Source: Rhipicephalus microplus
Lineage: Eukaryota; Arthropoda; Arachnida; Ixodida; Ixodidae
Reading direction: 5' to 3'
DNA: 64,000 bases
NCBI RefSeq assembly: GCF_043290135.1
Contig: NC_134710.1
Coordinates: 459,521,376 to 459,585,375 of the forward strand
This document shows, piece after piece, positions 21,995 to 62,638 of the stretch (positions within the stretch are counted from its first letter, which is position 1; each line of letters starts with the position of its first letter). The notes under the pieces are model-generated. The model made no database searches. It saw only the letters and a program-made list of their open reading frames with translations, and was not told where the DNA came from. A program made the translations under genes and the position numbers.

Positions 21995-24900
21995 TCACTC
22001 GTGCCTTGACTTTAGCCACCAATCAGATAACCTCCTTCGAGTTAGGTCTACCCACTTAAAGTCTATTTTGCCCTCCCGGTCCCTAAACCCCAGTGCTTTG
22101 AAAAACTCTGTGCCATCATTCTGAACTATAGGGTGAAGCCCTTTACAGAACATTATCAAGTGTTCGGCAGTTTCTTTTTCCTCTCCACACGCACTGCATA
22201 CTGTGTCTACCCCTTCGTATTTGGCCCGATATGTCTTGGTTCGTAGTACTCCCGTCCTGGCCTCAAACAGTAGAGAACTACCCCGAGTATTATTATAGAT
22301 TCTTTCCTTGTCAATTTCCTGCTTAAAAGTGCGATAGATCTCTTGTGCGGACTTCTTAATCATACCCATTCTCCACATGTCAGTCTCCGTTTCCTTCACT
22401 TTCTTCTTAACCGATAGTTCTTTTTGGTTTGGCCACCTGCTGTTTTCTAAGTATTTACCAGTCAACTTCCTGGTTCGCTTCTTCCATTTTGTATCGGCAT
22501 TCTTCATGTACAAGTAGCTGAAAACCTTCCTAGCCCAAAGCTCCTCTCCCATTTCTCTCAATCGCTTCTCAAGTTTTATCTTGCTGCTAGCTTCCTTGCC
22601 CTCAAATGATGTCCATCCCATATTACCTTGTACTCCCTGATTTGGTGTATTCCCGTGAGCTCCTAAAGCAAGCCTACCTATTCCACGTTGCTTAATTTCT
22701 AATCTTGCTTGAACTTCTGAACTCATGCACAAGACCGCATTGCCGAACGTCGGCCCAGGAACCAAGACCCCTTTCCATATTCTTCTAACAACATCATACC
22801 TATTGTAATTCCACAGTGCCCTATTTTTCATCACTGCTGCATTCCTGTTACCTTTAGTCGTCACGTATATTTCGTGTTCCTTCAGGTACTCGGTCCCATT
22901 GCTTATCCATACGTCCAGATATTTGAATTTATCTGTTATCTCTAGCGTGACCTCCTGTATTCTAAGCTCACTACCTTCGTTGTCATTGAAAATCATGACT
23001 GCTGATTTTTTCTTACTGAATCTAAAATCTAACCTATCTCCCTCATTACCGCAGATGTCCATCAATCAGTGCAAATCTTCCTTGTTGTTGGCCATTAGCA
23101 CTATATCATCTGCGTACATTAATGCTAGTAGTGCCTGATCAAAAACTTTTCCTTGTTTGACTAAAGAGAGGTTGAAGCCCAGTTCACTTCCCTCTAATTT
23201 TGCCTCTAATCCTTGTAGGTACATCATGAATAATAAGGGTGACAGGGGGCACTTCTGCCTAAGCCCCCGTTTTACCTCTGCAGGCTTAGATACCTGTTTT
23301 TCCCACTTTATAACTACCTTGTTAGCTTTATAGATACCCTTTAAAAGATTAGTGACTATATGTTCCACGCCTACTGTGTCCAGTATTCCCCAATATTCCT
23401 CTTGAACCACGCTATCGTACGCTCCCTTGATATTCAAAAATGCTAGCCCCAGGGGCCTGTGTTCCTTTTCTGCTGTTTCGATGCACTGCGTCAGTGAGAA
23501 CAGATTGTCTTCCAACCTCCTGTGTTTCCAAAACCCACTTTGCAGTTCCCCCAGCGCCCCCTCATCCTCTGTTCATAACTGCAGTCTTTCCTTTATAATC
23601 TGCATCGCCAGCCTGTAGACCACTGATGTCACTGTTATAGGACGGTAGTTGTTTATGTCAGCTTTGTCCCCCTTTCCTTTATAGATCTTGCTCATCCTGC
23701 TACGTTTCCATCCATCGGGAACTTCACCATCGATTATTATTTTGCTCACTGCCTCTCTCAAAGCCTGCTTAGACTTCGGACTTAATGTCTTTATCAGCCT
23801 ATTTGGAATGCCATCTGGGCCTGTTGATGTACTACTAGGAACCCTTTTCTCAGCCCTTTCCCACTCTAGTTGTGAAAATGCAGCCATTGCACCACTTGAT
23901 TCATCTTTGTCTATTGTGATGCATAAAGTACTTCTTTGTTGAAATTTTTCTGTCACCCTTGTTCTTATATAATAAATAGCTTCGTACCCTTCTAGCCTAG
24001 CACCTTGTGCTTTAGTTATAAAACTCTGCTCTAGTTTTGTCTCATTTCTTAGGGAGTATAGATGGTTGCAAAATTTCGCAGCGGCCTTTCTATCTTTTTT
24101 ATGTACTTCTGCCAGCCACTGAGCTCTCTTTCTTCTAATCTTTTCATTGATCAGAATGAATGCCTCCCTTCTACAGCTTAGAAAGTTTTCCCATTTTCTT
24201 TCAACATCATCTGTTGGTTCACCCCGCTGCTTAGCATGTCTGTGTTCACTAGAGGCTTCCTGACGTTTTGCTGTGGCTCTCTTAACTTCCTCATCCCACC
24301 AACTTTAAGGTTTGTGTCTTCTTTTCCGGGGTGACTTGTCACGCGTCTTAGCAAGCTCTAGCTCAAAGAGTCTAGATAGATTCATGTATGTCCACACTGT
24401 CTTATTATCCTCCGTGATTACTTTCTCAATTTGTTTTGTGGCTATTTCAGTTTGCCTTTCTGGATAAACATTTTCCTGTAATTTCTCATCTTGTCTCCTT
24501 CCCACTTTCACTGCTCTTCCAAAACTTAGCTTGATACGTTTGTGATCACTACCCAGACTTCTGGAGCCACCTTCATCTATGTGCATTCCCCTGAGCTTAT
24601 CATACATCCTATGTGACATCAGTGCATAATCTATTGTCGACTGCAGCCTTCCTACCTCCCATGTTATTTGCCCTTCACACTTCTCGGTACTGTTGCAAAT
24701 GATCAAATCAAGCCTTTCACACATATCCATGATCATTTGGCCTGTCGGGTCGGTATACTCATCTATATCTTCTATGTGCGCATTCATGTCTCCTAGTATA
24801 ATTGTCTCACACTCTCTACCTAACTCCTGAATGTCCTTTGATATACACTCTACCATTGCCTGGTTTTCCTCTCTGGCTTTTGCTTCCGTCCACAAGTACA

Positions 24901-25303
24901 CGAAACCAAGGAGTGTCATTTGACCTGCCACTTTTCCTCTCAACCATAAATGTTCCTTGCACTCCTGCTTGACCCTTTGCCAGTCTGTACCTCTATGAAT
25001 GAATGCCCCAATACCACCCCCCTTTCTGCTGCCTTCTGTTTTATTACAATATTTTCCCGCGTAGTCCGGATTGTTCGGTGGTTGTTCCATGTCCCTGAGA
25101 TGTGTTTCTACAAAACCGTATACCATCGGCTTCTCTTCCCTTAGCTGTTGTTCTATCTTTTCCCACTTCAGCCTGTTCCTACCACCCGTCATGTTAATAT
25201 ACCCTATGTCTGAAATGGCTCGGCGCTCGTGGCTACGTCCGTTTATGCCCCGGACTCTACCTATCTTAGATAATGGTGCCACTTTGCAATCGTATCTGTT
25301 CAT
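21995..25303 (-). pseudogene. LINE copy 1 ORF2: endonuclease and reverse transcriptase
   Basis: One continuous register from ATG at 25303 to 21995, interrupted only by three in-frame stops (TAA at 24305, TGA at 23573, TGA at 23066). Copy 2 has K, W and Q at the corresponding places. Endonuclease motifs: FVETHLRD, LGDMNAHIED and SLGSDHKRI. RT motifs: NYRPITVTSVVYR, LNIKGAYDSV, RGLRQKCPLSPLLF and catalytic LMYADDIVL. C-terminal finger: CSACGEEKETAEHLIMFC. About 1,100 codons, normal for a LINE ORF2. The lack of indels implies fairly recent death by point mutation. Confidence 0.85.
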
Positions 25304-34885: not shown

Positions 34886-37800
34886 CATGGATGGATGCTG
34901 GATGGATGCTATGAGCGTCCCCTTTATAACGGGGTGGTGACAAGTATGCCACCAGGCTCGACAAAAAAAAAAAAAAAACCTTTTTTTCTTTTTATGTTGG
35001 CCTAATGCCTCTACTTCGACAAATTCTATCTTAATGGAAAAAAAGGTAAATTTTCAGCTTAAGTTCTCTGCCATTTACGGCACACTGTCCATATTTTATT
35101 TTTCCAATATTTATTTTTGTCCTTTCTCTCTAATTTTCTGCCACCAATACTCTAACCGTCTCTTACTTATTTCAATCGCGGGTGTGTTCAGCTTTCCATT
35201 GTTGTCCCTAAAACCCAAGGCTTCCTGTAGGCTCGTGCCCAAACGTACACCTGGGTGGATATCTCCACATTCAATCAGAACATGCTCCGCCGTTTCCTTA
35301 TCTTTCCCGCAGCATGTGCATTGTTCTTCTTCTTTACTGAATCTTGCTTTATAACTACGCGTTCTAAGGCAACCCGATCTCGCTTCAAACAGTAAAGCGC
35401 TTCCCCTTGAATTATCGTAAAATGCCTCCCTCCTTATTTCATTTTTGCCCTTTCGGTAGTTACTCAAAGCCGGTTTTTTCTCCATAGCTGCCATCCAGTA
35501 AATCCTCTCCGCCTCCCTGACTTTTCCCTTAACGCTCTTTGTTGACATACGGCTTACAATACCAGCCGTATACTTACTAGTGAGTCTTCTAGTTCTTTTT
35601 CTCCACTGTGTGTCCACGCTCTTCCTATACAAATAACGGAACACCTTCTCTGCCCATCTACTCTCCTTCATATTTCTTAGCCTTTCTTCGAACCTTATTT
35701 TGCTCTGCGCTTCCCTCGCCTCAAAACCTGCCCACCCCATATCGCCCTTTACAGCCTCGTTTGTCGTCTTCCCGTGAGCACCCAACGCGAGGCGTCCCAC
35801 AGTCCTTTGATTTACATCCATTCCCGCTTGCACCTCTGCCCTCATGCACACCACTGAGTTCCCAAAAGTAAGCCCTGGAACCATTACACCCTTCCACAGA
35901 CCTCGAAGCACCTCATACCTATTGTATCCCCACAACGCTCTGTGCTTCATTATTGCCGCATTCCTATTTCCTTTTGCTGCCGAGGCTTTTTCCTGTACCT
36001 CCATGTATCTATCACTCTCATTTACCCATACTCCAAGGTACTTGTATTCACTTACCCTCGGTATTTCTTGGCCTTGTATGGACACCGTCTGATCACAGGG
36101 ATCATTGAATACCATCAATCCACACTTCCTTACACTGAATCCTAGTCCAAGAGCTTCACCTTCCCTTCCGCATATATTCGCCAGCTGCTGTATATCATCT
36201 CGACTGTCCGCAAATAAGACGATATCGTCCGCATAAAATAAACCTGGAAGCTTCTGCTCAATCATCATGCCGCCCTGTTTTTGTGACAGATTAAAACCAA
36301 TGTTGCTACCTTCTAGCGCTTTTTCCATACTCACCATGTACAGCATGAATAACAGCGGGGACAAAGAACATCCCTGTCTCAGACCCCTGCTAACCTCAAC
36401 GTTCTCTTTGCTACGCATTCCTTCCCACTCTATGCAAACTGTATTTTCTCGGTATATCTCCCTCAAAAGCTGTATACAGTCGTCGCCCATGCCCATTCCT
36501 TTCAATATATCCCACAAAATTTCCTGATTAACGTTGTCGTATGCCCCAGTGATGTCTAGAAAAGCCACGTACAAGGGCCTATTCTCTATTTTGGATATTT
36601 CTATACACTGAGTGAGAACAAACAGGTTATCGTCTAACCGCCTGTCGACTCGAAATCCGTTCTGAAGTTCTCCCAAAATATCGTTATGTTCGGCCCATGT
36701 TTCTATTTTCATTTTTACTGCTTGCATCGCCATCCTGTATAGTACCGATGTAATGGTTAGTGGTCTATACGAGCGAATCTTGTCCTTTTCTCCCTTGCCT
36801 TTATAGATTAAGTTCATTCTACTTTGTCGCCAACTGTCCGGTATTTGTCCGTCCTTTAAGCTTTTTTCTACTGCTTTTAACAATGCTTCTTTAGTGTTAT
36901 GTCCTAGTTCGTTAATGAGGCTAACGGGAATCCCATCTAAACCCGCGGCAGTGCGCTTTGGAATTTTTCCTTCGGCCTTTTTCCAGTTGAAATTATCAAG
37001 TACTAGCTCTTCCTCTGTTGCTTTCTCCGCCACACTTTTACTCACCGGGGAGATCCCCTGGACGCTCTTTTGAAACGAATCGGCTGTTACCTTTTGGATG
37101 TAACCTAGCGCTTCGTACCCTTCCAATTGATTTCCTCCTTCATCTAGAATATGTTGTTGCGTTGTGACAGACTTCCTACCTAGCGCCTTTATGTGGCTCC
37201 AAAAAATCCTAGGCGCGGCCTCCTTTTTTTCGTGTATCTCTGTCATCCAGCGTTCACTTTCACCTTTAATTTTTGCCTCTACCAATTTCTGTACAAGGGA
37301 TTTTTTCTCTAAATATATTTCCCATATTTTTTTGACTTCGTCCTGCGGCCGCTTCTCCTTTTTTGCCTTTCTATGCTCCCGTGAGGCTTCGCGTCGCTTC
37401 TCGATCGCCTCCCGGATTTCCTTGTTCCACCAACTTTTTGGCTTCCTTTTTCCTTTCCAGCAAACAGTTTTCTTCTCTTTCCCTATCTCCTTCGTCATTA
37501 GATGTAACAGCTCACTATACTCCCAGTCCTTGCCTGGTATTTCGCCTACTTCTTCCTCGACTCTTGCGGCTATATTTATTATTTGTTTGTCATTTAAATA
37601 CGAGCTGCCAGACTTTGATTCCATGCTCATATTTTCAGTTTCGTATCCCATTTGTAATGTTATTCGTTTATGATCACTACCCAAGCTGTTAATGCCTTCC
37701 TCGTCTATCCTCATTTCTGTCAGTTTGTGGTAAATTCCTTCAGTCATGAGACAATAATCAATACTTGATTGCTTGTTTCCGACTTCCCATGTGATCTGGC

Positions 37801-38060
37801 CGTCACATTTAGGCCCCGTGTTAACTATCTCCAGACTATGTTGCTCGCAAAGATCTAGTAATAACTTCCCATTGGTGTCTGAATATCCGTCAAGGTCATG
37901 TATGTGGGCATTCATGTCCCCTAGAAGGATGATTTCGGCCCCATTACCAAATTCCTTAATATCCGCACTCATGCAATCCACTATCTCCTGATTCTTTTCT
38001 CTGCAGTTATTCCCCGTCCACAAGTAGGCTACCCCTAGCCACGTTTCCTTTCCACCTACT
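34886..38060 (-). mobile_element. 5'-truncated LINE, copy 2 of the SGNH-type family
   Basis: Minus strand. It begins inside the endonuclease near 38060 and runs through ORF2 (to 35111), a 3' UTR with A/T homopolymers (34965-35050) and a short ATGGATGG-type tail (34886-34905). Truncation at the 5' end is the normal result of incomplete reverse transcription. It sits inside the THAP transposon. No convincing target duplication was seen. Confidence 0.75.
35111..38023 (-). CDS. LINE copy 2 ORF2: partial endonuclease plus intact reverse transcriptase
   Basis: A 970-codon uninterrupted frame; its first codon is only the first non-stop start-like codon, since the frame is open a little upstream (ETWLGVAYL). 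The endonuclease lacks its first third, but LLGDMNAHIHDLDG and SLGSDHKRITL remain. RT motifs: SYRPLTITSVLYRMAM, LDITGAYDNV, RGLRQGCSLSPLLF and catalytic LFYADDIVLFAD. Downstream are TFGNSVVCMRAEVQ, GRLALGAHG and the C-terminal finger CTCCGKDKETAEHVLIEC. It is about 70% similar by eye to copy 1 and resolves the copy 1 stop codons. The RT domain appears intact, but without a full endonuclease or promoter it should not be autonomous. Confidence 0.85.
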   Translation of the reverse strand: MWTGNNCREKNQEIVDCMSADIKEFGNGAEIILLGDMNAHIHDLDGYSDTNGKLLLDLCEQHSLEIVNTGPKCDGQITWEVGNKQSSIDYCLMTEGIYHKLTEMRIDEEGINSLGSDHKRITLQMGYETENMSMESKSGSSYLNDKQIINIAARVEEEVGEIPGKDWEYSELLHLMTKEIGKEKKTVCWKGKRKPKSWWNKEIREAIEKRREASREHRKAKKEKRPQDEVKKIWEIYLEKKSLVQKLVEAKIKGESERWMTEIHEKKEAAPRIFWSHIKALGRKSVTTQQHILDEGGNQLEGYEALGYIQKVTADSFQKSVQGISPVSKSVAEKATEEELVLDNFNWKKAEGKIPKRTAAGLDGIPVSLINELGHNTKEALLKAVEKSLKDGQIPDSWRQSRMNLIYKGKGEKDKIRSYRPLTITSVLYRMAMQAVKMKIETWAEHNDILGELQNGFRVDRRLDDNLFVLTQCIEISKIENRPLYVAFLDITGAYDNVNQEILWDILKGMGMGDDCIQLLREIYRENTVCIEWEGMRSKENVEVSRGLRQGCSLSPLLFMLYMVSMEKALEGSNIGFNLSQKQGGMMIEQKLPGLFYADDIVLFADSRDDIQQLANICGREGEALGLGFSVRKCGLMVFNDPCDQTVSIQGQEIPRVSEYKYLGVWVNESDRYMEVQEKASAAKGNRNAAIMKHRALWGYNRYEVLRGLWKGVMVPGLTFGNSVVCMRAEVQAGMDVNQRTVGRLALGAHGKTTNEAVKGDMGWAGFEAREAQSKIRFEERLRNMKESRWAEKVFRYLYRKSVDTQWRKRTRRLTSKYTAGIVSRMSTKSVKGKVREAERIYWMAAMEKKPALSNYRKGKNEIRREAFYDNSRGSALLFEARSGCLRTRSYKARFSKEEEQCTCCGKDKETAEHVLIECGDIHPGVRLGTSLQEALGFRDNNGKLNTPAIEISKRRLEYWWQKIREKGQK

Positions 38061-38076
38061 GTCTCTTACATCCCTC

Positions 38077-39202
38077 TTACATGCAGCGCCATCTCACGGC
38101 GCGCGGAGCAGTCCCCGCTGAGACAACCCGCTTCGCTAGTCCGCGGTGGCGGGGCCATTTCGTCTGCTCCGCAACGGAGCACGCCGTTGGGAAGCCAAAA
38201 GTTCTGTTCGACTTCGCCTTCATTCTTCGAAGACTACGACGAACATTCGTCTTGGCCGCCCTCCTCTTGGGGCACCTTCGCCTGGAGAGTTGGTTCAGGA
38301 TAAGCTTCCTTTGATATTTACAGTGGATGCAGGCAGTGGCCGGGCATTCTTTCGTTGTGATTGTGCAGTTCTTAGAAAAGAACTTTCCATTGAATGACGA
38401 CCACTCGCCAGACAAAGGTTCTAGACCGGCACCACAACAGACACTGAATTTATCTACATGGTCCAGCAACGCTTCCACTTCCTCACGCGTTGCAATCTGC
38501 TGCTGTTGCCACTTTCTTCCTTGCAAGTGAACTTCAACGGTAGCAGCGTTTTATTCACTTCGCACTGCAATTTTTACGAGCTTCTTCAAAGCGAGTGCGC
38601 TGTCAACATCTTTCTCGTGCTCCTCGCACTGTGCGTGCACAAAAGGGCCTCCTGAGTGAGGCAGGTGAATTTCCGACCATCCGTGAGGCGTTTTCAGGCC
38701 CGAAAATGACAAGCACCCACTCACCTCCACAGAATCGATGCTTGAAACCTGCGTTTCGAGATCCTCGATGGGCGGTGGCAAGCTTTCGGAAAACTTCTTT
38801 CTGCTTCGCTTGGCCGCAGGAAGCACCTGGTCGCAGATGCTTCGCTTTTTCCTCTTTTTTTGGGAGCCGTTTTGATATGTAGCTTGGGGCCCCGGGGAAG
38901 ATGGTAGGGAAGGCATCTTTCGCTAGCTGCGGACAATCGCGTTCGATTTCAACAACTTCCCCATTAATAGTTGTTTTGAAAGTCTGCTCAATGAAGTGTG
39001 CCTCAAAGTGCGAATTGCAAACCGCACTTGCGTCGTTGAGCTCTCTGTCGGCTCTTTTAATAAGCCTGGACCAAGCTTCGCGTTTAACGACGTCCGCCGG
39101 AACACGAAACAGTGACCGCGCTTCCTTGCACGACCGATAGCCACTGTTGCAGTATGGCAGGAAACACGTGCGGTCGCGCCTGTCCCGCCGTCGTTCCGCC
39201 AT
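38077..39202 (-). pseudogene. THAP-domain transposase-like gene, frameshifted and truncated
   Basis: ATG at 39202 (MAERRRDRRDRT) opens a THAP zinc finger: CFLPYC...W..LIKRA...AVCNSHFEAHF, then FPTIFPG (C2CH, residues about 13-100). THAP fingers bind specific DNA, in P elements the transposon ends. After about residue 115 the sense appears to shift frame within an A-rich stretch (near 38860-38880) to a Lys/Arg-rich segment ending at a good donor (GTGAGT, 38724-38719). A possible acceptor lies at 38629-38630. A later segment (38526-38077) has KECPATACIHCKYQRKLILN, resembling the region after THAP in such proteins. No catalytic domain remains; the LINE begins directly after it. Confidence 0.6.
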
Positions 39203-48513: not shown

Positions 48514-49612
48514 TGGCAGCGGTGGTGACGGCTGGAAACAACGAACTTCTAGGATCACTCTGTTTTTTCAGTGCTTGTCGTATATACCAAGCCGTGTACG
48601 GTCACCTCGGCGCACGTGTTGCTCTTGCCTCGGTTTCATCGCCTGTCTCGTGCGTCATTGGTGGAACCTGCGTGGATTTCCTGCACGGTCAACCCGAGTC
48701 GATAATCGGCACTGCGCAGCTGCCTGGTTCATCCTTCCCGGATAAGTGGGACGGCGAAATCGACTTGGCATCATTCGGCAGCGGTGGTGACGGCTGGAAA
48801 CAACGAACTTCTAGGATCACTCTGTTTTTGCAGTGCTTGTATATACCAAGCCATGTACGGTCACCTCGGCGCACATGTTGCTCTTGCCTCGGTTTCATCA
48901 CCTGTCTCATGCGTCATTGGTGGAACCTGCGTGGATTTCCTGCACGGTCAACCCGAGTCGATAATCGGCACTGCGCAGCTGCCTGGTTCATCCTTCCCGG
49001 ATAAGTGGGACGGCGAAATCGACTTGGCATCATTCGGCAGCGGTGGTGACGGCTAGAAACAACGAACTTCTAGGATCACTCTGTTTTTGCAGTGCTTGTT
49101 TATACCAAGCTGTGTACGGTCACCTCGGCGCACGTGTTGCTCTTGCCTCGGTTTCATCGCCTGTCTCGTGCGTCATTGGTGGAACCTGCGTGGATTTCCT
49201 GCACGGTCAACCCGAGTCGATAATCGGCACTGCGCAGCTGCCTGGTTCATCCTTCCCGGATAAGTGGGACGGCGAATTCGACTTGGCATCATTCGGCAGC
49301 GGTGGTGACGGCTGGAAACAATGAACTTCTAGGATCACTCTGTTTTTGCAGTGCTTGTATATACCAAGCCGTGTACGGTCACCTCGGCGCACGTGTTGCT
49401 CTTGCCTCGGTTTCATCACCTGTCTCATGCGTCATTGGTGGAACCTGCGTGCATTTCCTGCACGGTCAATCCGAATCGATAATCGGCACTGCGCAGCTGC
49501 CTGGTTCATTCTTCCCGGATAAGTGGGACGGCGAAATCGACTTGGCGTCATTCGGCAGCGGTGGTCACGGCTGGAAACAACGAACTTCTAGGATCACTCT
49601 GTTTTTGCAGGT
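48514..49612 (+). repeat. Tandem array of about 259-bp monomers, likely LINE 5' UTR/promoter
   Basis: The word GGTGGTGACGGCTGG (or one-base variants) starts at 48521, 48783, 49042, 49301 and 49560, i.e. periods of 262, 259, 259 and 259. Four full units and a fifth of about 50 bases are present, nearly identical to one another. Open frames of up to 182 codons span units but shift register, since 259 is not divisible by 3. The last unit ends at TTTTTGCAG, after which unique sequence leads to the LINE ORF1. Confidence 0.9.
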
Positions 49613-49614
49613 TA

Positions 49615-49618
49615 GTGC
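49615..49618 (+). repeat. Left target-site duplication (GTGC) of the integrase-first element
   Basis: GTGC directly precedes the left LTR and recurs at 56236-56239 directly after the right LTR. Confidence 0.75.
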
Positions 49619-50311
49619 TGTTGTGACTGGGGGAATTTGTCGGGCCTTGAGCCATCCAAGGGTCAGGGCGAAGACGGGCCGAGGAGCCGGAGCTGATAAC
49701 TTGAACGATTTATTTACACTATTTTACATGATGTTGAAGGTAGCGTGTTACATGGAGTAAGCATCATACTAGATGATGGAAGGAAGCTCTCTCCCCGAGC
49801 GTCCTGCGCTCGCGTTTTTATGCCCCCGAAGAGAGAAAGTCACACCGCCTCCTTCCCAACCTGGGAAGGGAGGAGAGGCCCGCCCAGTTCGCTGCCCGGC
49901 GAGGGTGTAACACACACAATACACGACACCACTGGCACAGTGCGAGAACGGGGAGTCGGACGCGCCGAGATGACTCTTCGAGGAAACATCGCTCGGGAAA
50001 GGCGCCATGGAACGTGAGGAATGTCCCCGAAGATGAATACAAAGCGCTCGGCTCATTGTCCGCTGAATGTTGACGACCCAAGCAATGACCACTCCCTCTA
50101 GGCAGCCCAGACAGCGAACAGCCCCCCCCCCCGGTAATCTGTCGGTCGTGCGTGCCCAAAGGGCTTTTTGGCAAGACGAGCCGACGACTCCAAGGAATTC
50201 GCAGTACTACTGCTGTGTTGTTGCCGATTCTGGACGTCTCAGGACGCGCTGCGAAGCCGGAACCATTCCACGCGTCCAAGCGGCGCCCAGACATGGGGGC
50301 CGATCACAACA
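49619..50311 (-). repeat. 3' LTR of the integrase-first element
   Basis: 693 bp. On the minus strand it contains a TATA-like CATAAAAACG and an AATAAA about 90 bases before the end (plus-strand 49709-49714). It includes an 11-C run also present, with equal length, in the other LTR. Confidence 0.95.
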
Positions 50312-50940
50312 GCTCGTCCGCCGCCGGGAAAAAGGACTCGTAGATGGGCAGCCCAACGCTGCACCTTGAAGAGGCCTGGCAGCGCAGCAGCTCTGGAACG
50401 GCTGCGGCTCAGGTTTTCTCTCTCGCTCAAGTGGGGTCAGCAGGTCCGTAAGTAGTACTCTCCGTCGAAGGGGCCCCCGCAGGTCGAAGGCTGGGACTGA
50501 CATTAGTGATCAAATCCGCACAGTACCCAAGCAGCGACAAGGCGGTACACCACCCCTCCCGAGATATGCCAGGCTACTGAACTCTTAGCCCGTTGTCGGC
50601 ATAAAAGCAGCCACACTAGAACGTTGCCTGGAACGTCCCCAAACAAAGCAATATGGCAACGCTCCTAAAGTTTTGAAGAATTTACCTTAAATAAATTGCA
50701 CTCAAGCCGCAAGTCGCATAGCCTTGAGGCAAATGGCGAGTGAGAAGTGAGAAGGTCGGGAAACTCAACTAACAAATTATATCCCTTTCTCAACGTCTGG
50801 CCGTGGCAGGCAGACTAAGTAACAGGTTCACCATGCAGTAAAGGTTAAAAAAAAATCCAAAACGAAAAGATACACGGAATGACATAACAAAATAAAAAAC
50901 CCGGGCTGTCGTAACTCAATCGGAATGCGCTTGCTCCTTA

Positions 50941-53900
50941 TCACAGGAAGCCTCGGCTGAGAGCATCAGCATTTCCATTATCCCGCCCCTTTTTGTAGCG
51001 GATCTCAAAATTATGTTCTTGCAGTGCCAAACTCCATCTCAGTAGGCGGCCATTTTTAGGCGACATATTCCGAAGCCATGACAAGGGACAGTGATCTGTC
51101 TCGACAAGAAAGGGCGAGCCGGCCAAGTAGCACCGAAGCTTGTAAATAGCCCACACTAAGCATGCACACTCTTTCTCTGAGGTGCTATAAGCCTCCTCAC
51201 GTGTGGAAAGCTTACGACTAATGAAAAGCACGGGGTGCTCCTCTCTACTTTCATCTCGCTGACTCAGAACAGCCCCAAGACCCCTTTCACTAGCGTCGCA
51301 CTGAAGTACAAAAGGTCGGTTATAATCCGGAGCTCGTAAAATCGGTTGAGACGTCAGTGCTGCTTTCAAAGCCTGGAACGAACTTTCCCTTAACTCGTCC
51401 CACTGGACTTTAACGGGCTCTCCCTTCCTTAAACTGTCGGTCAGAGGACTGGCGATCTGTGAATATTTGGGGATATAGTGTTGGTAATATCCAGTGAGGC
51501 CTAGAAAGGCCCTGATATCAGTTTTAGTGACAGGTCGGGGATAGTTCTCGATGGCGGCAAGTTTTACCTCGTGGGGCCGCCGGCATCCTCGCCCAACAAT
51601 GTGCCCTAGATACTCTACTTCCGCCTGTCCCAATTGACACTTTTCTGCTTTAACAGTGAGGCCCGCGTTCCTTAAGCGCGTCAAGACGTCCCGCAAGTGG
51701 CTCAGGTGTTTTTCCCAGCTGTCCGAAAACACTGCAATATCATCTAGATAAGGAACAGCGTAGTTCTCTGCTCCCGCCAGCACACGATCCATGAGCCGTG
51801 AAAAGCAAAAGGGCGCGTTTTTGAGCCCAAAACTCATGACCAGGGGTCGGAAAGTGCCCAAGGGGGAGATAAACGCTGCGTATTTACTGGCTCGTTCGGT
51901 CATAGGCACCTGCCAGTAGCCGCGTGTGAGGTCTAGCGTGGAGACGTACTGAGCCCTGCTAACAGTTTCCACTCTCTCCTCTACGTTGGGAATAGGGTAC
52001 AGCTGGTCTCGCGTGACGGCATTCAGTTTCCGATAATCGATGCAGGGTCTCGGTTCCTTCCCGGGTGCTTCCACCAGTATTAGAGGGGAGGTGTACTCAC
52101 TCTCCGACGGGACGATGACACCAATTTCCAACATTCTTTGAATCTCGCGTGCGAGAATTTCCCTTTGCCTGGGTGACACGCGATAAGGCCGTGAAAGAAT
52201 GGGTTCATTAGAAGTTAGTTCAATGTCGTGCTCAACTAAATCGGTTCTTCCTGGCCGGTCAACGAAAGCTCCCTCAAACTCGCGCAGTAGGTTCTCCAGT
52301 TCTCTTTTCTGTTCTGCATTCAAATTCGAGTTACTGGTGACCGTGTCTAGCAAGATGTCGAGGGACTGAGAATCAGAAGCCTGCCCGGGAAAAGGAAAAT
52401 CTGTCTCTAATTCTTCCGGAACGTTAAGCGCGAGTTGAACTACTGCTGACCGCTGGTGGTAAGGTTTCATCAAGTTTGAATGGTAAATCTTTACCTCTTT
52501 CCGCCTTCCCGGTAGTTTGACCACATAATTGGTGTCCGACAACTTCTGCATAACCTTCGCAGGGCCCTCCCACTGAACCGCGAGCTTGTTCGCTTTAGAT
52601 GATGCTAAAAGCATCACCTGATCTCCTTCTGAAAACGAACGTTGACGTGCGTTCTTATCGTACAGACGTTTTGCTTTAAGCTGCGCCATTGTCATGTTCG
52701 CCTCAACGAGTTCTCTGCAGGTCTGAAGTCGCCCGAGTAAGCCCAACACATACTCGATCACAGTGGGATCCTCACCCCTCCCTTCCCAAGATTCTCGCAG
52801 CATGCGAAGTGGGGTCCTTAGAGATCTCCCATACACTAGCTCAGCGGGACTAAAGCCGGTGGCCTCGTGCGGCACAGACCTCAGGGCAAACATGGTGGCT
52901 GGCAAGCATGCTTCCCAATCTTTCCGATTCTCGTAGCACAATGCCCGTAATACCCTTTTGAGAACCGAGTGCCATGCTTCTACTGAATTGCTCTGAGGAT
53001 GTCTGACGGAACTGTGTATTATCCTAATGCCACACCTCTCCAAGAATGTGGTAGTTAGTGCGCTAGTAAACACACTGCCCTGGTCGCTCTGTAACTCTGA
53101 CGGGAAGCCTACTCTCGAAAACACTGAAAGCAAAGCATCCACTATTTCTACAGATGACTGCTCCTTCAAGGGAACCGCCTCCGGGAATTTTGTGGCAGGA
53201 CATATCAAGGTTAAGATGTAGCGGTACCCTGACTTTGTCACAGGCAGGGGGCCCACAACGTCCACGACAAGGCGGCGGAAAGGTTCACTAATGAGTGGCA
53301 CCAACTTTAAGGGCGCTTTCTGCTGGTCGTGTGCTTTGCCTATTCTTTGGCACACATCGCAGGATTGCACATACCTCTCGGTATCCTTGAAACAATTGGG
53401 CCAATAAAACTCCCTAAGTAGACGAGTCTTCGTTTTCTTTTTGCCAAGATGGCCCGACCACCCGCCACCGTGACACAGCTCCAGTACTTTGGCTCGGTAT
53501 TTCTGTGGAACCACTAATTGATCATAGTGCACCCCCTTCGAGTCTTTGTACTGACGGTACAAAATTCCGGCGCGGCGGTGCAAAAAGACGTTCTTCCGCG
53601 CCAACCCCTCCTCCACCATATCGCTCAACTTTTGCAGCGTTTTATCCTCGGCCTGTTCCGCAGCGATAACCTCCGGGCTTACTTTCGATAGCTCCAAGAA
53701 CCCGCCCATGCAAGGTAGCACGGAAAGAAGGTTAACTTCCTCGCTGGCCTCACTGGAACTCTTAAAGCTGCTTTCGCCATCGCTCGGGACGTTCTCCTGA
53801 TTCGCGTCTGCCCCTGTTTCGTCGGGGGCCTGTGCCTCTCTATTTTGGGAACTGCCGAGCTCCTTTGCGATCTCCTTTGCCTTAGACCGCGTTAGAGCAT

Positions 53901-55352
53901 GTACAGTGTGTTCTCCAAAGCTCAGACCTTTCTTTCTTAACAGGTCCTCCGAGTGGTTAGAAAAAAGGTAACCGTACTGCTTCGGCAAACTTTGTGACAC
54001 GGCAGCCTCTGTTTCCAGTTCTCCGAAGGGACCCTTGATGAGGACTTTGGCCACTGGCAGACACACACTGTCTTCCTGCGCTACCTGTCTGATCCACGCG
54101 CAGTCTCCGGTGAACCCATCCGCGGGCACGTAAGATGGGTGTATTACATCCATAGTGGCCGCAGAATCGCGTAGAACCCGGCAATTTTGCCCATTGACAG
54201 TCATCTCTCTTAAGTACGGTTCAAGTAACCTCATGTTCTCATCAGTATGGTTAAAAAGGGAGAAAACGAGTTTTTCCTTACGGCAACCCACTGCTAAGTG
54301 CCCCGGTTCATTACATCGATAGCACACAATGGGTTTCTTTGCCTCAAATGCTCTGTCGCGATTCTTATCCTGTTCTTTCTCTTTGCCAGCGCGTCCACTC
54401 ATGGTCGATTCCCCGTGCGTGTCTTTTTCATTCGTCCCTCCTGGTGCAATAGGGGCATAACTGTTGCGCTCAGACTGCTTAGAATTCTCACGGTATGGTT
54501 TCTTTGCGGGTTTGTTGCGCTCTCTTATTTCCTCACGCCTCATGGTGTACTCTTCAGCCAGTTCTGCGGTACGCTCCAAATTCTTTTCCCCGGGCTGATC
54601 TAATACCCATAAGCGTGCTTCGTCACTTAGAACGTTCAGGAATTGCTCCGTGCAAATCAACTCGACTACCTTGTCATGGTCTCCAAAAGCTCCCTCGCCC
54701 TTAAGCCACTCGGTGAGATTGCACCTCAGACTGTATGCAAAATCGGCAAATGATTCACTGCTACGTTTGCTACTATTTCTGAAACGTCGTCGGAAAGCTT
54801 CAGCAGACAGCCGATACCTCTTTAGTAGCGCACGCTTTACAATATCGTAGTCATTCGCCTCATCTCGCGGCAAACGAGCCAGTACATCCGCTGCCTCGCA
54901 TGGAAGCACGGTCAAGAGCATTTGTGCCCATAACTCACGCTCAAACTTGCCTTCGCAACTTCTCTCAAAATTGACCAAAAATAACCCGATATCCTCTCCC
55001 ATCTTAAAAGGATTCAGGAGGTCTTTTATTTTTGGTGCCTTGCTTACTGGAGCATTGAGTGTTGCGCCTCCTGAGGTAGTTGCCCGAGCTATTTCTAAGT
55101 CTAGGCGCTTCTTATCCAGTTCGTGCTTGCGCTCGCGCTCGCGCACGCGTTCCTGCTCTTCTTTATGGCGCTCGCGCTCCTGATCTTCCCTTTTTTTTTT
55201 ATATCCTCCCACAACTCCACGATCTCCTCGTCATCTCTGCTTGCCTCCATAGCCCTGATGACTTCCGCCTTTTTAAGATGTTTCCCGCAATCAATCCCGA
55301 ATTCCCCGCATATCACGTCTAGGTCCGATCTGTGCAACTTTCTCCAAGCCAT
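50941..55352 (-). CDS. Gag-pol polyprotein, order gag-PR-IN-RT-RH
   Basis: The main frame is 55212-50941 (1,423 codons, no stop). Numbering from its first codon: coiled-coil/charged region 1-40; gag capsid-like 55-235 (FADFAYSLRCNLTEWL); CCHC knuckle 297-310 (CYRCNEPGHLAVGC); protease-like site near 349 (LRDSAATMD); integrase zinc finger H581, H588, C618, C621; integrase acids D651, D710, E745; RT 1000-1180 with CIDYRKLN, LDLTRGYWQV, FGLKNAPFCF and YLDD at 1155-1158; RNase H 1300-1423 with QCDASERGLGAVL, TSEKEC and ADALSR. A preceding ATG frame (55352 to about 55200) encodes a SAP-like segment (LHRSDLDVICGEFGI...) and meets the main frame at an A10 run, one base out of register. Confidence 0.9.
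55191..55200 (-). other. A10 homopolymer at the frame junction of gag
   Basis: Ten T on plus (A10 on minus) sit where the ATG-initiated 5' frame and the long gag-pol frame overlap. This could be a real one-base indel, a sequencing artefact or a slippage site. Confidence 0.7.
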
Positions 55353-55523
55353 GGCTGCTACTTTTCTGCCGACAAGTTTCTCAAGGGAAAGCGTTGAAGC
55401 AAGGTTCCCGTGAACAGGCTTCCAACACTCTTGTTACCAGGAAGAACTAATTTAAGCCTGGCAACTCTCAAGGAGAAAAGGTCGTGCACTCACCAAGCCG
55501 GAGTCGAATTCCTGCGCAGATCA

Positions 55524-55541
55524 TCTCACCGCTGCCATCCA
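55524..55541 (-). promoter_or_regulatory. Candidate primer-binding site of the integrase-first element
   Basis: On the minus strand, one base after the 5' LTR, the sequence begins TGGATGGCAGCGGTGAG. TGG matches the complement of a tRNA CCA end. The tRNA is not identified. Confidence 0.55.
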
Positions 55542-55542
55542 C

Positions 55543-56235
55543 TGTTGTGACTGGGGGAATTTGCCGGGCCTTGAGCCATCCAAGGGTCAGGGCGAAGACG
55601 GGCCGAGGAGCCGGAGCTGATAACTTGAACGATTTATTTACACTATTTTACATGATGTTGAAGGTAGCGTGTTACATGGAGTAAGCATCATACTAGATGA
55701 TGGAAGGAAGCTCTCTCCCCGAGCGTCCTGCGCTCGCGTTTTTATGCCCCCGAAGAGAGAAAGTCACACCGCCTCCTTCCCAACCTGGGAAGGGAGGAGA
55801 GGCCCGCCCAGTTCGCTGCCCGGCGAGGGTGTAACACACACAATACACGACACCACTGGCACAGTGCGAGAACGGGGAGTCGGACGCGCCGAGATGACTC
55901 TTCGAGGAAACATCGCTCGGGAAAGGCGCCATGGAACGTGAGGAATGTCCCCGAAGATGAATACAAAGCGCTCGGCTCATTGTCCGCTGAATGTTGACGA
56001 CCCAAGCAATGACCACTCCCTCTAGGCAGCCCAGACAGCGAACAGCCCCCCCCCCCGGTAATCTGTCGGTCGTGCGTGCCCAAAGGGCTTTTTGGCAAGA
56101 CGAGCCGACGACTCCAAGGAATTCGCAGTACTACTGCTGTGTTGTTGCCGATTCTGGACGTCTCAGGACGCGCTGCGAAGCCGGAACCATTCCACGCGTC
56201 CAAGCGGCGCCCAGACATGGGGGCCGATCACAACA
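55543..56235 (-). repeat. 5' LTR of the integrase-first element
   Basis: 693 bp, one visible difference from the other LTR. Followed on plus by GTGC. Confidence 0.95.
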
Positions 56236-56329
56236 GTGCCGCTAAAGGTTTTAAAGTAGTAATTTACGATTTCTTCGGTGACCACCGCTGCTGCAAGTGC
56301 CCATATATTGTTATTGTTTATGCTTCACA

Positions 56330-57681: not shown

Positions 57682-57697
57682 TGGTGGCAGTGCTGGG
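57682..57697 (+). promoter_or_regulatory. Candidate primer-binding site of element B
   Basis: TGGTGGCAGTGCTGGG begins four bases after the LTR (AATC spacer). It is similar in form to the TGGTGGAGTTGCTGGG of element A. Confidence 0.65.
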
Positions 57698-57701
57698 TGT
57701 G

Positions 57702-59087
57702 ATGCCAAGCCCCTCTCGAGTGACGGAGCACAGTCCAGAACCACAGCGATTTCGACCCAACGAGCTGACGCCTATTCATCAGCGCTGCAGTCGACGCCTA
57801 CGTGGTGAGGGTCCTGAATTTTCACCTTTATCGACTTCGCTTGGAACATCAACGGCTGTGAACGGGTACGCAACCGACATGACAGCTCAGGTCACTCCAG
57901 CCAATATTGTCGTAAACCAGCCAATGCTACCAAAGCCTTTCCACGGTGAAAGCTACGAGGACTCAGAGGACTGGCTTGAGCACTTTGAACGCGTCGCAAA
58001 GGCTAACGGATATGGGGAAGAGCGCAAACTTGGAAGTGTTTACTTCGCACTGGAAGATAGCGCACGAACGTGGTATGAAAACCACGAAGCCACCTTCCGG
58101 TCATGGAATGATTTTCGACGGGAGCTACACGCTGCTTTCCCGAACACAGACCGTAAAGAGAGAGCTGAAGCTGCGCTCCAGACAAGAAATCAGCGCAATA
58201 ACGAAACTGTCGCCATGTATCTGGAAGACATGTCTCGCTTATTCCACCGAGCGGACCCAAATATGAGCGAAGACAGGAAGCTGCGCCATCTGATGCGAGG
58301 CGTGAAGCAAGAACTCTTTGCCGGACTAATTCGAAGCCCGCCGCGCACCGTCGCCGAGTTTCGTTCCCAGGCGACTACAATGGAAAGGACGCTACAACAG
58401 CGAGCAAGGTTATACAACCGGGATGCGATCGTCACTTCCTTGGACATGTTGCCACCAGCCTTCGGTAACGGCATGGAAGCACTACGCGAGCTGGTGCGGT
58501 CTGTTGTGCGAGAAGAGCTGCAGAGGCAGCGTCTTGACCAGAACGCTCCAATGCTTTCGTCTCTGGCCGATGTGATCCGTGAGGAGGTCAGGCAGGTGGT
58601 ACGCGAACCTTCGAGCAACGCACAGCCAGGGCCGCCACTACAACAGAAGACGAGAATGACGTATGCTGATGTGCTACTACGAGGACCTCCAGGACGTGCG
58701 GACGTCGCGGCGGCTACACCTATGCAGTACCCGATGCCGCCGAGCACCCTGCAGCCAACGCCAGAGAGGAGACTAAGGAAGAGCGATGTCTGGCGCACTC
58801 CCGACAGGATACCGCTGTGTTACCACTGTGGGGAGCCTGGTCATCTCTACCGAACGTGCCACTACCGCCAGGCAGGACTCCGTGGTTTTCCTGTTAATGC
58901 ACCTCGACCACAAAATGGTGAACGTCCCTTCGAAATTGAAGAATACCTGTCAGGTCGTCAAACCTCAAGTGGCTTCCAACGACACCAACCTCGGGCAACG
59001 ACAACGGGGAGGTATAGATCGCCTAGCCCCCGACCTTCAGCAAGCTCCCCAAGGTCTCGTTCCCCAAGCCCGCGTCGGGAAAACTAG
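57702..59087 (+). CDS. gag: Element B Gag
   Basis: 461 codons from ATG at 57702 (MPSPSRVTEHSPEP); a frame-compatible non-ATG extension begins at 57684 inside the primer site. Capsid-like core about residues 85-215: LPKPFHGESYEDSEDWLEHF, ALEDSARTWY and TVAMYLEDMSRLFHRADPNM. Arg-rich middle, zinc knuckle CYHCGEPGHLYRTC near residue 373, then a Ser/Arg/Pro-rich tail ending SPSPRREN. The protein would form particles and bind genomic RNA. The stop TAG (59085-59087) follows GGGAAAAC, where a -1 shift would enter pol. Confidence 0.85.
   Translation: MPSPSRVTEHSPEPQRFRPNELTPIHQRCSRRLRGEGPEFSPLSTSLGTSTAVNGYATDMTAQVTPANIVVNQPMLPKPFHGESYEDSEDWLEHFERVAKANGYGEERKLGSVYFALEDSARTWYENHEATFRSWNDFRRELHAAFPNTDRKERAEAALQTRNQRNNETVAMYLEDMSRLFHRADPNMSEDRKLRHLMRGVKQELFAGLIRSPPRTVAEFRSQATTMERTLQQRARLYNRDAIVTSLDMLPPAFGNGMEALRELVRSVVREELQRQRLDQNAPMLSSLADVIREEVRQVVREPSSNAQPGPPLQQKTRMTYADVLLRGPPGRADVAAATPMQYPMPPSTLQPTPERRLRKSDVWRTPDRIPLCYHCGEPGHLYRTCHYRQAGLRGFPVNAPRPQNGERPFEIEEYLSGRQTSSGFQRHQPRATTTGRYRSPSPRPSASSPRSRSPSPRREN
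59076..59087 (+). promoter_or_regulatory. Candidate -1 frameshift site between gag and pol (element B)
   Basis: CGGGAAAACTAG: gag reads CGG GAA AAC TAG, while the pol frame, one base back, reads GGA AAA CTA. Element A has the same CGGGAAAACT followed by GA at the same place. Confidence 0.55.
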
Positions 59088-62000
59088 AGTCAGCGACCTG
59101 TGGAGGCAAGGCCGCTGTCGACACTAATGCAGAAAAACCTCCATTGCTGACTCTGAACGATGACCGATTCAGAAACCGGTGCTTCGATAGTGACGTTGCT
59201 TCCGATTTACGTGTGTTCGTTGACGGCTATGAAGTCATCGGACTGGTAGATACCGGCGCAGATTATTCAGTGATGAGTAGCGGACTTTCTAAAATACTAA
59301 AGAAAGTGATGACTCCTTGGAAGGGACCACAAGTTCGCACAGCAGGAGGGCACCTCATCGACCCTACTGGAATATGCACAGCAAGAATCGGAATACGGGG
59401 TTTCACGTACGTCGCCAGTTTTATTGTGCTGCCGGAATGCTCAAGAGACTTGATTATCGGCATGGATTTCTTACGAGCTAATGGCGCTGTAATTAACTTG
59501 CGAGAATCTTCCGTCTCATTCTCGACTAGGCACGCGATTGGTACCTTTGAAACGGAAGAAAACGTATATGACCTTTGTATTGCAGATGATGGCGTCATGG
59601 TTCCGCCAAGGTCGAGCATATCTGTCGCAGTAAACAACAAAGCATTCAGTGAATTCGAAGGATTTGCTGACAACAACACTGCCTTACTACTCCAAAAAGG
59701 GATCTGCATGGCACGAGGCCTTGTTAAGTTACGTGACGGATGTGCAAATGTTCTACTCACAAACTTTGGAAATGAGGTGCAGCACGTTGCAAAAGGAACC
59801 GTCGTCGCCAGTCTGAATGATTTCGTCCAGGTTACGGAGCTGCGAACTTTTGAAACCAATGATTCTGATTTCGAAGACGTGGAGTCTGTCCTTGCAGCCA
59901 TCGACATCGAGCCAGGCCTACTACCAAGCGAAAAAGAGCAAATAGAGGGTCTTTTAAGGGAATTCGCCGAATGTTTCTCGTTGTCATCTAAGGTTCGACG
60001 CACTCCTGTCGCTAAACATCGCATCATTGTCGACGAGTCAGTGAGGCCAATACACCAGCATCCCTACCGAGTGTCACCAAAAGAAAGAGAAGCTATTGGT
60101 AATCAGGTTAAAGAAATGCTCAAAGACGATGTTGTCCAGCCTTCATCAAGTCCATGGGCGTCACCTGTTGTTCTTGTGAAGAAAAAAGACCAAACCTTAC
60201 GTTTCTGCGTTGATTATCGGAAGCTGAATGTCGTCACCAAACGGGATGTTTATCCTCTGCCAAGAATTGACGACACTCTGGATAGGCTGCGAAATGCCAG
60301 GTATTTTTCCTCATTGGATCTTAAAAGTGGGTATTGGCAGATAGAAGTGGACGAAAGAGATCGCGAAAAGACAGCGTTTGTGACACCGGACGGTTTATAC
60401 GAGTTCAAGGTACTCCCTTTTGGCCTTTGTTCAGCACCCGCCACATTCCAACGGATGATGGACACAGTGCTTTGTGGTCTTAAATGGCAGTCATGTCTGG
60501 TTTATCTCGACGATGTTGTAGTTTTCTCGGCTACCTTTGAGCAACATTTGGAAAGGCTCCGGGCCGTGCTCACTGCGATCAAATCAGCGGACTTGACGAT
60601 AAAACCGCAGAAATGTCATTTCGGCTTCCGTGAGCTCCTTTTTCTCGGCCATGTCATCAGTGCAGAAGGCGTCCGCCCAGACCCTGCAAAAACTGAGGCC
60701 GTAGCAAGATTTCCGAAGCCAACAGACAAAAAGGCTGTTAGGCGATTTTTAGGTCTCTGCGCCTATTATCGACGGTTCGTTAAAAATTTTTCACGAATTG
60801 CTGAACCACTGACACGGCTGACAAAAGAGGAAATGCCTTTCGTATGGCTTGCCGAACAAGAGGATGCCTTCAATGAACTACGAAAGTGCCTTCAAAGCCA
60901 TCCTGTTCTGGCGCATTTTGACGAGGAAGTGGAAACCGATATCCACACGGATGCAAGCAATTTAGGTCTTGGGGCCGTGCTCATCCAATGGCAAAACGGA
61001 CAAGAACGAGTCATTGCGTATGCCAGTCGCACTCTTTCGAAAGCTGAGGTGGACTACTCAGCGACCGAGAAAGAATGCCTTGCCGTGGTATGGGCTATCA
61101 GCAAGTTTCGACCATATTTATATGGTAGGCCTTTTCGAGTTATAAGCGACCATCATTCGCTATGCTGGCTGGCTAATCTCAAGGACCCATGTGGACGGCT
61201 TGCACGATGGAGCTTGCGATTACAGGAGTATGATATCACGCTTGTGTACAAGTCAGGTCGCAAGCACAGTGATGCGGACTGCTTGTCACGTGCTCCGATT
61301 CAACCTGCTGCTTCAGCGTCCACCGAGGATGGTGAAGATTTTATTTTCTTGGGAGCTGTGACACCATCAGAGATGGCACATCAGCAGCGATCCGACCCTG
61401 AGATACTCCTCTTGATCAAGTACCTACAAGGACAGTCTGTCGATGTTCCACGACCTTTTGTCCGCGCCTTGTCAGCGTTTGTCCTACGAAACAACATCCT
61501 GTATAAAAGGAACTTTGACAACAATACAGCGACATTCCTGCTTGTCGTCCCTTCACCTCTGCGACCAGAGATTTTGGAGGCTTGCCATGACGATCCATCA
61601 GCTGGACACTTAGGAGTAAGCAGAACGTTAGCACGCATCCGCACTAAATACTACTGGCCGAAGTTGCTTAGCTCTGTACGACACTATGTCAGAACCTGCC
61701 GGGACTGCCAAAGACGTAAAACGCCACCGCTAAAACCAGCAGGTCTCCTTCAACCGATAGAACCACCAGAAGCCCCATTCACACAAGTAGGAATGGACTT
61801 ACTGGGCCCATTTCCTACTTCGTCATCGGGAAAACGGTGGATAATAGTTGCGACCGACTATTTAACCAGATATGCCGAGACAGCGACTCTAGTTAAAGGA
61901 TCAGCCGTTGAAGTAGCCGAATTCTTCGTCTCCGACATAGTACTGCGGCACGGAGCTCCAAAAGCGTTGATCACGGACCGAGGGACTGCATTTACGGCCG

Positions 62001-62638
62001 ACCTGATGAAATGTATCATGAAATTGACGCACACCAGTCATAGAAAAACGACGGCATATCATCCTCAAGCAAATGGTCTAACGGAACGACTGAACAGAAC
62101 GCTGGCTGATATGTTGTCAATGTACGTTGATATAGAACACCGTACTTGGGATAAAATATTACCCTATGCAACATTCGCCTATAACACTGCGATGCAAGAG
62201 ACAACACGGATGACGCCATTCCAACTTGTTTTTGGCCGGACGGTAACGACACCTTTAGATGCAATGTTACCTATTGACGAGACGCCCGAGAATTACTATG
62301 ACGTTCACGACTACATACAAAGAGCAGAAGAAGCTAGACAGCTGGCACGATATCGCATTCTCCAACAGCAGAAAACCGACACGCATCGATACAATCTGCG
62401 AAGAAGAGACGTCCAGTACGCACCAGGAAACAGAGTATGGGTGTGGATTCCTGTACGAATACGTGGGCTGTCAGAAAAACTGCTTCGCCGCTATTTCGGT
62501 CCGTACAGAGTGCTCCGCCGCGTCGGCTCGCTCAACTACGAAGTTACGCCAGAGGGACAGGATATTTCATCCCGACGGCGGCATCGCACGGAAACTGTGC
62601 ATGTCGTCAGGATGAAACCATATCACGACAGGCAATGA
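59088..62638 (+). CDS. pol: Element B Pol: protease, RT, RNase H, integrase
   Basis: The frame lies -1 to gag and is open without a stop to 62638. The first start-like codon is 59144 (TTG), so expression by frameshift is likely. Numbering from 59144: protease LVDTGADYSVMSS (D36) and LIIGMDFLRANG; RT about 280-500 with FCVDYRKLN, LKSGYWQIEV, LPFGLCSAPATFQ and YLDD at 454-457; RNase H about 600-720 (HTDASNLGLGAVL, ATEKECLAVVWA, DADCLSRA); integrase zinc finger HDDPSAGHLG...CRDCQ; acids D885, D945, E981 with 35 residues between the last two; GPY/F tail YFGPYRVLRRV. All catalytic residues I can check are present. Confidence 0.92.

What the first reader, a model, noticed from the sequence alone, without database searches (positions are those of the whole stretch)
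49619..56235. A young Ty3-type retrotransposon with integrase encoded before reverse transcriptase
The single gag-pol frame reads gag, CCHC, protease-like, integrase (zinc finger and D651, D710, E745), then RT (YLDD at 1155-1158) and RNase H at the very C-terminus. Integrase-first is the Ty1/copia order, but the RT and RNase H blocks (CIDYRKLN, FGLKNAPF, TSEKEC, ADALSR) are Ty3-type. This is the arrangement of the Gmr1 group reported from deuterostomes (Goodwin and Poulter). Finding it in an apparent arthropod genome, full length with LTRs that differ at one visible base, suggests an overlooked and recently active lineage.
Basis: partly seen in the sequence, partly recalled or inferred. Interest (0 to 1): 0.9.

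Follow-up and report, generated by a model that had tools for sequence, protein, structure and literature searches.

The report
Young integrase-first retrotransposon in cattle tick
This is a recently active, multi-copy LTR retrotransposon in a cattle-tick genome whose integrase is encoded before its reverse transcriptase; it belongs with the known Gmr1 group of animal retrotransposons, so it extends a known kind and is not a new kind.

Summary
A 6,617-bp LTR retrotransposon lies on the minus strand at 49619-56235, with 693-bp LTRs differing at one base and a GTGC target duplication. Its 1,423-aa frame reads SCAN-type capsid, CCHC, protease, integrase, RT, RNase H. RT-RNase H and integrase trees agree: the 39 integrase-first rows used (ticks, spiders, beetle, mollusc, echinoderms, lancelets, frogs, turtles, sponge) separate from conventional-order rows at 100/99, for integrase only after one very long row was left out. 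So it is no chimera.

Corrections: Gmr1-like elements were reported in crustaceans (2013) and an annelid (2021), and tick relatives are common in databases. In this copy gag's first ~52 codons are in another frame, broken at an A-run.

Extras: 11 of 25 insertions are deletion forms, one of them spread to six places; the protease triad reads D-S-A. Verdict: new member of a known kind.

The parts
49615..49618 (.). left target-site duplication GTGC
   Evidence: 4-bp duplications at all 23 insertions with two complete LTRs
49619..50311 (-). 3' LTR, 693 bp, TG...CA
50312..50325 (-). purine-rich stretch next to the 3' LTR, candidate polypurine tract (weak)
   Evidence: sequence read; inference
50312..50940 (-). 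3' untranslated region, 629 bp, no minus-strand ORF of 100 aa or more confined to it
50941..55212 (-). gag-pol ORF, 1423 aa (as listed from GTG; true gag start lies upstream in another frame)
51016..51327 (-). RNase H domain (PF17917), at the C terminus
51595..52062 (-). reverse transcriptase domain (PF00078); YLDD at 51739-51750
52462..52566 (-). integrase C-terminal p58 domain (PF22938)
52996..53286 (-). integrase core (PF00665); D651, D710, E745 (E745 lies just beyond the Pfam stretch)
53341..53511 (-). integrase zinc-binding domain H2C2 (PF17921)
53923..54240 (-). aspartic protease stretch, triad D-S-A (RDSAA at 54157-54171)
   Evidence: no Pfam match; low-confidence model with many strands
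54283..54324 (-). CCHC zinc knuckle
54529..54801 (-). SCAN-type capsid domain (PF02023)
   Evidence: PDB match to a chain of zinc finger protein 24, E 1.5e-4 (that this chain is its SCAN domain is recalled)
55191..55352 (-). N-terminal gag codons 1-54 in a frame different from the main ORF (frame broken in an A-run in this copy)
55525..55541 (-). candidate primer binding site, TGG... starting one base after the 5' LTR
   Evidence: sequence read; inference, tRNA partner not tested
55543..56235 (-). 5' LTR, 693 bp
56236..56239 (.). right target-site duplication GTGC

Best explanation
It is a young copy of a high-copy Gmr1-type Ty3/gypsy LTR retrotransposon in the cattle tick Rhipicephalus microplus. 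Shown: LTRs, 4-bp duplications, domain order, agreeing RT-RNase H and IN trees, many near-identical insertions, deletion derivatives. Inferred: an RNA made from the LTR is packed into Gag particles built from a SCAN-type capsid, primed by a host tRNA at the site next to the 5' LTR and copied by RT-RNase H. The protease cuts the polyprotein, releasing an integrase that lies between protease and RT. The integrase joins the cDNA to host DNA with a 4-bp stagger. This copy has a broken gag N-terminal frame and probably could not make Gag alone, but copies lacking much of IN and RT are still moved, so proteins of intact copies act in trans. The integrase-first order was inherited from the ancestor of the whole group; it was not made at this locus.
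For: Domain anatomy. The RT piece matches Ty3 RT-RNase H best in the PDB (4ol8, E 8.8e-76; next kinds: 8r0s enzymatic polyprotein 4.7e-56, 8wus Gag-Pol 4.1e-33); the IN piece matches PFV integrase (E 1.3e-28) and Ty3 (E 3.4e-27) about equally well. Of 288 homologues listed by three searches, 218 are IN-first, 40 are RT-first or mixed and 30 show one domain only; 119 of the 218 and 0 of the 40 have a SCAN stretch similar to this one. RT-RNase H tree: 39 IN-first rows against 14 RT-first rows on a 100/99 branch, in 200 of 200 bootstrap trees. IN tree: the same with 39 against 13 rows once one long-branch row is left out. IN and RT distances correlate over 38 rows, Mantel r 0.91, 0 of 2000 permutations as high. 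Copies: 875 first-look LTR candidates, 40 scored, all 99-100% identical, the window's own two included. Those 40 places belong to 25 insertions: 14 with the whole internal region and 11 with internal deletions; 4 substitutions in 15,959 aligned LTR bases of 23 pairs.
Against: Gmr1 of cod itself, mag, CsRn1, gypsy and copia references were not in hand, so the clade name rests on order, the SCAN capsid and grouping with frog, turtle, echinoderm and lancelet IN-first elements. The trees have no copia or BEL outgroup, so 'one side of a branch' is shown, not a rooted clade. With all 53 rows the IN tree does not separate cleanly: one conventional row (branch 4.48) sits on the IN-first side and only 16% of 200 bootstrap trees have one change. 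Many RT-first rows are fused or tandem gene predictions, and two of the 40 (P0272, P0099) join an IN-first-type part to a conventional part. No transcripts or small RNAs were examined. The protease triad is D-S-A, not D-T/S-G. The insertions were picked by similarity to this LTR, which favours young copies; 17 of the 23 LTR pairs also differ by one indel each.
Confidence: 0.93

Rival explanations
1. A chimera: a Ty3-type RT-RNase H joined to an integrase from another source (for example copia) at this locus or in this family.
For: The order itself resembles Ty1/copia. In the 53-row IN tree the separation from conventional Ty3 elements is not clean.
Against: The integrase has the H2C2 zinc domain and p58 C terminus also found in the window's conventional element and matches Ty3 and PFV integrase. 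Without one long-branch row the IN tree agrees with the RT tree, Mantel r 0.91.
Confidence: 0.03
2. An assembly artefact or a rearrangement limited to this locus.
For: One window alone could not exclude it; the gag A-run length varies among copies and might partly be sequencing error.
Against: Thirteen other insertions with the whole internal region in the same order, at other places, and 218 of 288 homologues from other records show it. All 23 insertions with two complete LTRs have a 4-bp duplication.
Confidence: 0.01
3. A separate arthropod (mainly chelicerate) integrase-first clade that deserves its own name beside Gmr1, possibly one already named in the Ixodes genome paper (Squirrel or Toxo).
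For: The 19 rows of ticks, spiders, beetle and unknown hosts form one side of a 100/100 branch of length 0.66 in both 53-row trees. PMC4748124 (passages seen) names two new clades likely specific to Chelicerata.
Against: A beetle element lies within the 19 rows. PMC4748124 describes two ORFs, gag and pol, and does not mention IN-first order in the passages seen; its supplement could not be read.
Confidence: 0.25

Closest known systems
Gmr1-like Ty3/gypsy elements (Goodwin and Poulter 2002, recalled, paper not held; frogs, crustaceans, annelid, pufferfish in held papers)
   Same: IN upstream of RT, Ty3-type RT-RNase H and IN, one gag-pol frame of about 1500 aa (pufferfish Gmr 1506-1634 aa, no env), SCAN domain (over 50% of frog Gmr elements)
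   Different: tick host; protease triad D-S-A; very young high-copy family; about 45-55% RT identity to the turtle and echinoderm members listed
IN-first tick relatives already in databases (for example LOC142775380 R. microplus, LOC144174347 Haemaphysalis longicornis, LOC135395680 Ornithodoros turicata)
   Same: same order, SCAN, 68-70% identity in RT-RNase H and IN
   Different: separate families; annotated only as uncharacterized proteins
conventional Ty3/gypsy elements of the same window (13169-15859, 59144-62638)
   Same: Ty3-type RT, RNase H, IN; 40-46% identity in RT and RNase H, 27-29% in IN
   Different: RT-RNase H-IN order; gag of the second is PF03732, not SCAN
Ty1/copia
   Same: IN before RT (recalled)
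   Different: RT and IN are of Ty3 type here

Membership tests
Gmr1-like clade of Ty3/gypsy | integrase upstream of RT in one pol | tested here: met
   definition as given in PMC8220671, PMC3587641, PMC6238403 (passages)
Gmr1-like clade of Ty3/gypsy | RT-RNase H of Ty3/gypsy type, grouping with other IN-first elements | tested here: met
   (unrooted; no named Gmr1 reference)
Gmr1-like clade of Ty3/gypsy | IN grouping the same way as RT | tested here: met
   with one long-branch row left out; with it is not clean
Gmr1-like clade of Ty3/gypsy | SCAN-type Gag (common, not universal) | tested here: met
   E 5e-13; PMC3424704 states SCAN derives from a Gmr1-like Gag (passage)
Gmr1-like clade of Ty3/gypsy | groups with cod Gmr1 itself | not tested
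   the reference sequence was not obtainable by name with these tools
Ty3/gypsy (Metaviridae) | LTRs TG...CA with short target duplication | tested here: met
   4-bp duplications in 23 of 23 insertions with two complete LTRs
Ty3/gypsy (Metaviridae) | tRNA primer site | tested here: inconclusive
   TGG-starting candidate one base after the 5' LTR; the genome tRNA search did not complete
Ty1/copia | copia-type RT and IN | tested here: not met
   (match Ty3-type models and chains; no copia reference was compared)

The most novel reading that the evidence does not exclude
Integrase-first Ty3 elements with a SCAN-type capsid form one lineage as old as the animals: intact-looking members with SCAN occur from a sponge to ticks and turtles, so the order changed once, early, and the vertebrate SCAN domain comes from a capsid type that long predates vertebrates. 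The tick branch runs on a retropepsin whose triad has become D-S-A.
Probability: 0.35. Interest if true: 0.5.

Novelty: new member of a known kind. Interest (0 to 1): 0.35.

Why it matters
It shows that the rare integrase-first layout of Ty3 elements is common in ticks and has spread very recently in one of them. This gives a multi-copy, near-identical system in which to ask how integrase works from the middle of a polyprotein, how non-autonomous copies are carried along, and how old the SCAN-type capsid is.

Tried and rejected
Chimera and local-artefact readings were tested and rejected (see rivals). I looked for a Pfam protease in residues 321-520 (none listed with the limit at E 5) and folded residues 321-470 alone: mean pLDDT 48.9, many strands in an order that could suit a retropepsin, but too poor for a fold search, which I did not run. 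An IN-less family with complete RT was considered because P0003, P0002 and P0020 lack IN; P0003 also lacks part of RT, so at least that one is a deletion form. tRNA genes: none in the window, and the whole-genome tRNA search did not complete. A mite genome paper in the listing held 'gmr1' only inside a DOI.

Rows dropped: from 57 units extracted for trees, four with short domain extracts were left out of all trees; one further long-branch row was left out of the second IN tree. L024, L025 and L026 were superseded by the longer stretches L027, L028 and L029 and counted once. L029 and L030 lack a second complete LTR in the stretch held and were left out of the 23 LTR pairs; L029's reading frame was checked only in gag (open).
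Full report
Observation. The element is real and exact at 49619-56235 on the minus strand. Its two 693-bp LTRs differ at one base and are flanked by GTGC. The 1,423-aa ORF at 50941-55212 contains, from N to C terminus, a SCAN domain, a zinc knuckle, a protease-like stretch, an integrase with H2C2 zinc domain, DDE core (D651, D710, E745) and p58 C terminus, then RT (YLDD) and RNase H. Two conventional gypsy elements in the same window read RT-RNase H-IN with the same probes, so the order is not a product of the method.

Host. The window lies in contig C11 of a 3.26-Gb genome. That contig is 513,293,480 bases long, the length of the contig of Rhipicephalus microplus protein LOC142775721, which is 100% identical over the aligned 80% of the RT-RNase H query. 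The host is therefore R. microplus, by inference from length and identity.

Not a chimera. Homologue searches with the RT-RNase H region and the IN region and with the RT-RNase H region of an urchin relative found 1870, 496 and 6771 proteins; only the best 120 of each were listed, 288 different ones in all. By position of the best matches 218 are IN-first, 40 are RT-first or mixed, 30 show only one of the two domains. Many of the RT-first rows are fused or tandem predictions, and two (P0272, P0099) join an IN-first-type part to a conventional part. The RT-RNase H tree of 53 rows puts 39 IN-first rows on one side of a 100/99 branch. The 53-row IN tree does not separate them cleanly because one plant row with a branch of 4.48 falls on the IN-first side, and only 16% of 200 bootstrap trees have a single change. 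Without that row the same split returns at 100/99 in all 200. Over 38 IN-first rows IN and RT distances correlate (Mantel r 0.91, 0 of 2000 permutations as high). The trees are unrooted with respect to copia and BEL.

Range. Named hosts of IN-first proteins include hard and soft ticks, spiders, the beetle Onthophagus, the scallop Pecten, echinoderms, lancelets, frogs, turtles and the sponge Halichondria. One further tree row is labelled Ephydatia by me from its record id only. SCAN is detected in tick, frog, holothurian and sponge members. PMC3424704 (passages) states that SCAN derives from the Gag of a Gmr1-like element; PMC4131045 (passages) found SCAN in over 50% of frog Gmr elements only. 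None of the 40 RT-first or mixed proteins has a SCAN stretch similar to the window's. Host order is not mirrored simply in the trees: sponge rows fall in two places in the RT tree, so old inheritance and horizontal spread are not separated here.

Activity. The LTR search gave 875 first-look candidates, of which 40 were scored, all 99-100% identical. All 40 places were fetched or lie in the window; they belong to 25 insertions. Fourteen have the whole internal region, one of them with a nested insertion and one (L029) with a partial LTR. All 23 insertions with two complete LTRs have a 4-bp duplication, and their LTR pairs differ by 4 substitutions in 15,959 aligned bases, plus one indel in 17 of the 23 pairs. 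The sample was chosen by likeness to this LTR, so it favours young copies. I give no age because no tick rate was tested.

Reading frames. Thirteen copies have the whole internal region and no nested insertion; in 12 of them the whole frame was measured. Seven have an open frame of 1468-1471 aa, and five (the window, L013, L015, L032, L035) start only at an internal Met, giving 1353 aa. In these five and in the deleted copy L027 the frame changes near gag codons 51-55 (25 copies). In all six the difference from an open copy disappears when A-runs are collapsed for comparison, so it is a length change in an A-run. One more copy, L014, differs in run length and stays open. Whether this is slippage during copying or sequencing error cannot be told here.

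Deletion derivatives. Eleven of 25 insertions lack internal parts of IN, RT or RNase H. Six share one junction (window 51340-52945 missing) at six places with six different 4-bp duplications, so this form has itself been copied and inserted. The six are also more alike than other copies (mean 1.7 differences among themselves, 4.5 to others, 21 variable columns, 21 copies compared). All six junction types have 5-15 bp of overlap, and five of six remove a multiple of three bases (one of these five also removes the stop codon and part of the 3' untranslated region). Template switching by RT is the likely source (inference). Leader, gag and protease are kept in all 11; one of them (L030) has a partial LTR. 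This is as expected if packaging signals act in cis while RT and IN are supplied in trans.

Protease. The motif RDSAAT stands where relatives have RDSGAT or RDTGAT. At that position DSAA is found in 37 of 141 sequences with an alignable stretch, and in 30 of the 51 with RT identity of 60% or more; both counts include the window itself. D-T/S-G as the retropepsin standard is recalled. The stretch has 62-71% identity in the six fragments from named tick species other than P0003 in the table, so it looks conserved, not decaying.

Literature. Known: Gmr1-like order (passages), crustacean and annelid members, SCAN link. No paper I looked into names Gmr1 in chelicerates (searches; listings partly capped). 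[quoted passage not shown] Goodwin and Poulter 2002 and Emerson and Thomas 2011 are cited from recall or through other papers (not held).

Verdict. A well-supported, recently active tick member of a known, unusual clade; worth recording, not a new kind.

Noticed in passing
window 54157-54171; homologues: The protease triad reads D-S-A instead of D-T/S-G in this element and in 36 of the 140 other alignable sequences, 29 of these among the 50 closest by RT identity of 60% or more.
   Followed up: partly
L017-L020, L027, L042: One deletion derivative lacking the C-terminal part of IN, all RT and the start of RNase H sits at six places with six different 4-bp duplications: a non-autonomous form that spread.
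   Followed up: partly
window 55191-55212 and homologous places in L013, L014, L015, L027, L032, L035: An A-run near gag codons 51-55 varies in length among copies and breaks the frame in 6 of 25 insertions; slippage or sequencing error.
   Followed up: partly
P0002, P0020: Proteins with SCAN, protease, complete RT and RNase H but no integrase (P0020 from Amblyomma americanum): deletion forms or gene-model artefacts.
   Followed up: no
window 48515-49610: Tandem array of a 259-bp unit, 4.2 copies, 96% matches, ending eight bases before the element.
   Followed up: no
window 13169-15859 minus and 57684-62638 plus: Two conventional Ty3 elements used here as controls: the first was tested for RT, RNase H and IN only, the second also has gag (PF03732) and protease.
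   Followed up: partly
window 10210-11325, 24305-25303, 35111-38023, all minus: Non-LTR retrotransposon fragments with RT (first), endonuclease (second) or both (third).
   Followed up: no
window 38603-39202 minus: ORF with a THAP domain, E 9.8e-12.
   Followed up: no
L022-L023: A copy with the whole internal region carries an insertion of roughly 4.6 kb inside its protease region.
   Followed up: no
P0129, P0049 and P0090 N termini: Some relatives carry a Rho_N domain at the start of Gag (P0129 E 3e-6; P0049 0.0027, below the cut-off) and P0090 a SAP domain (precomputed), possibly a nucleic-acid binding module.
   Followed up: no
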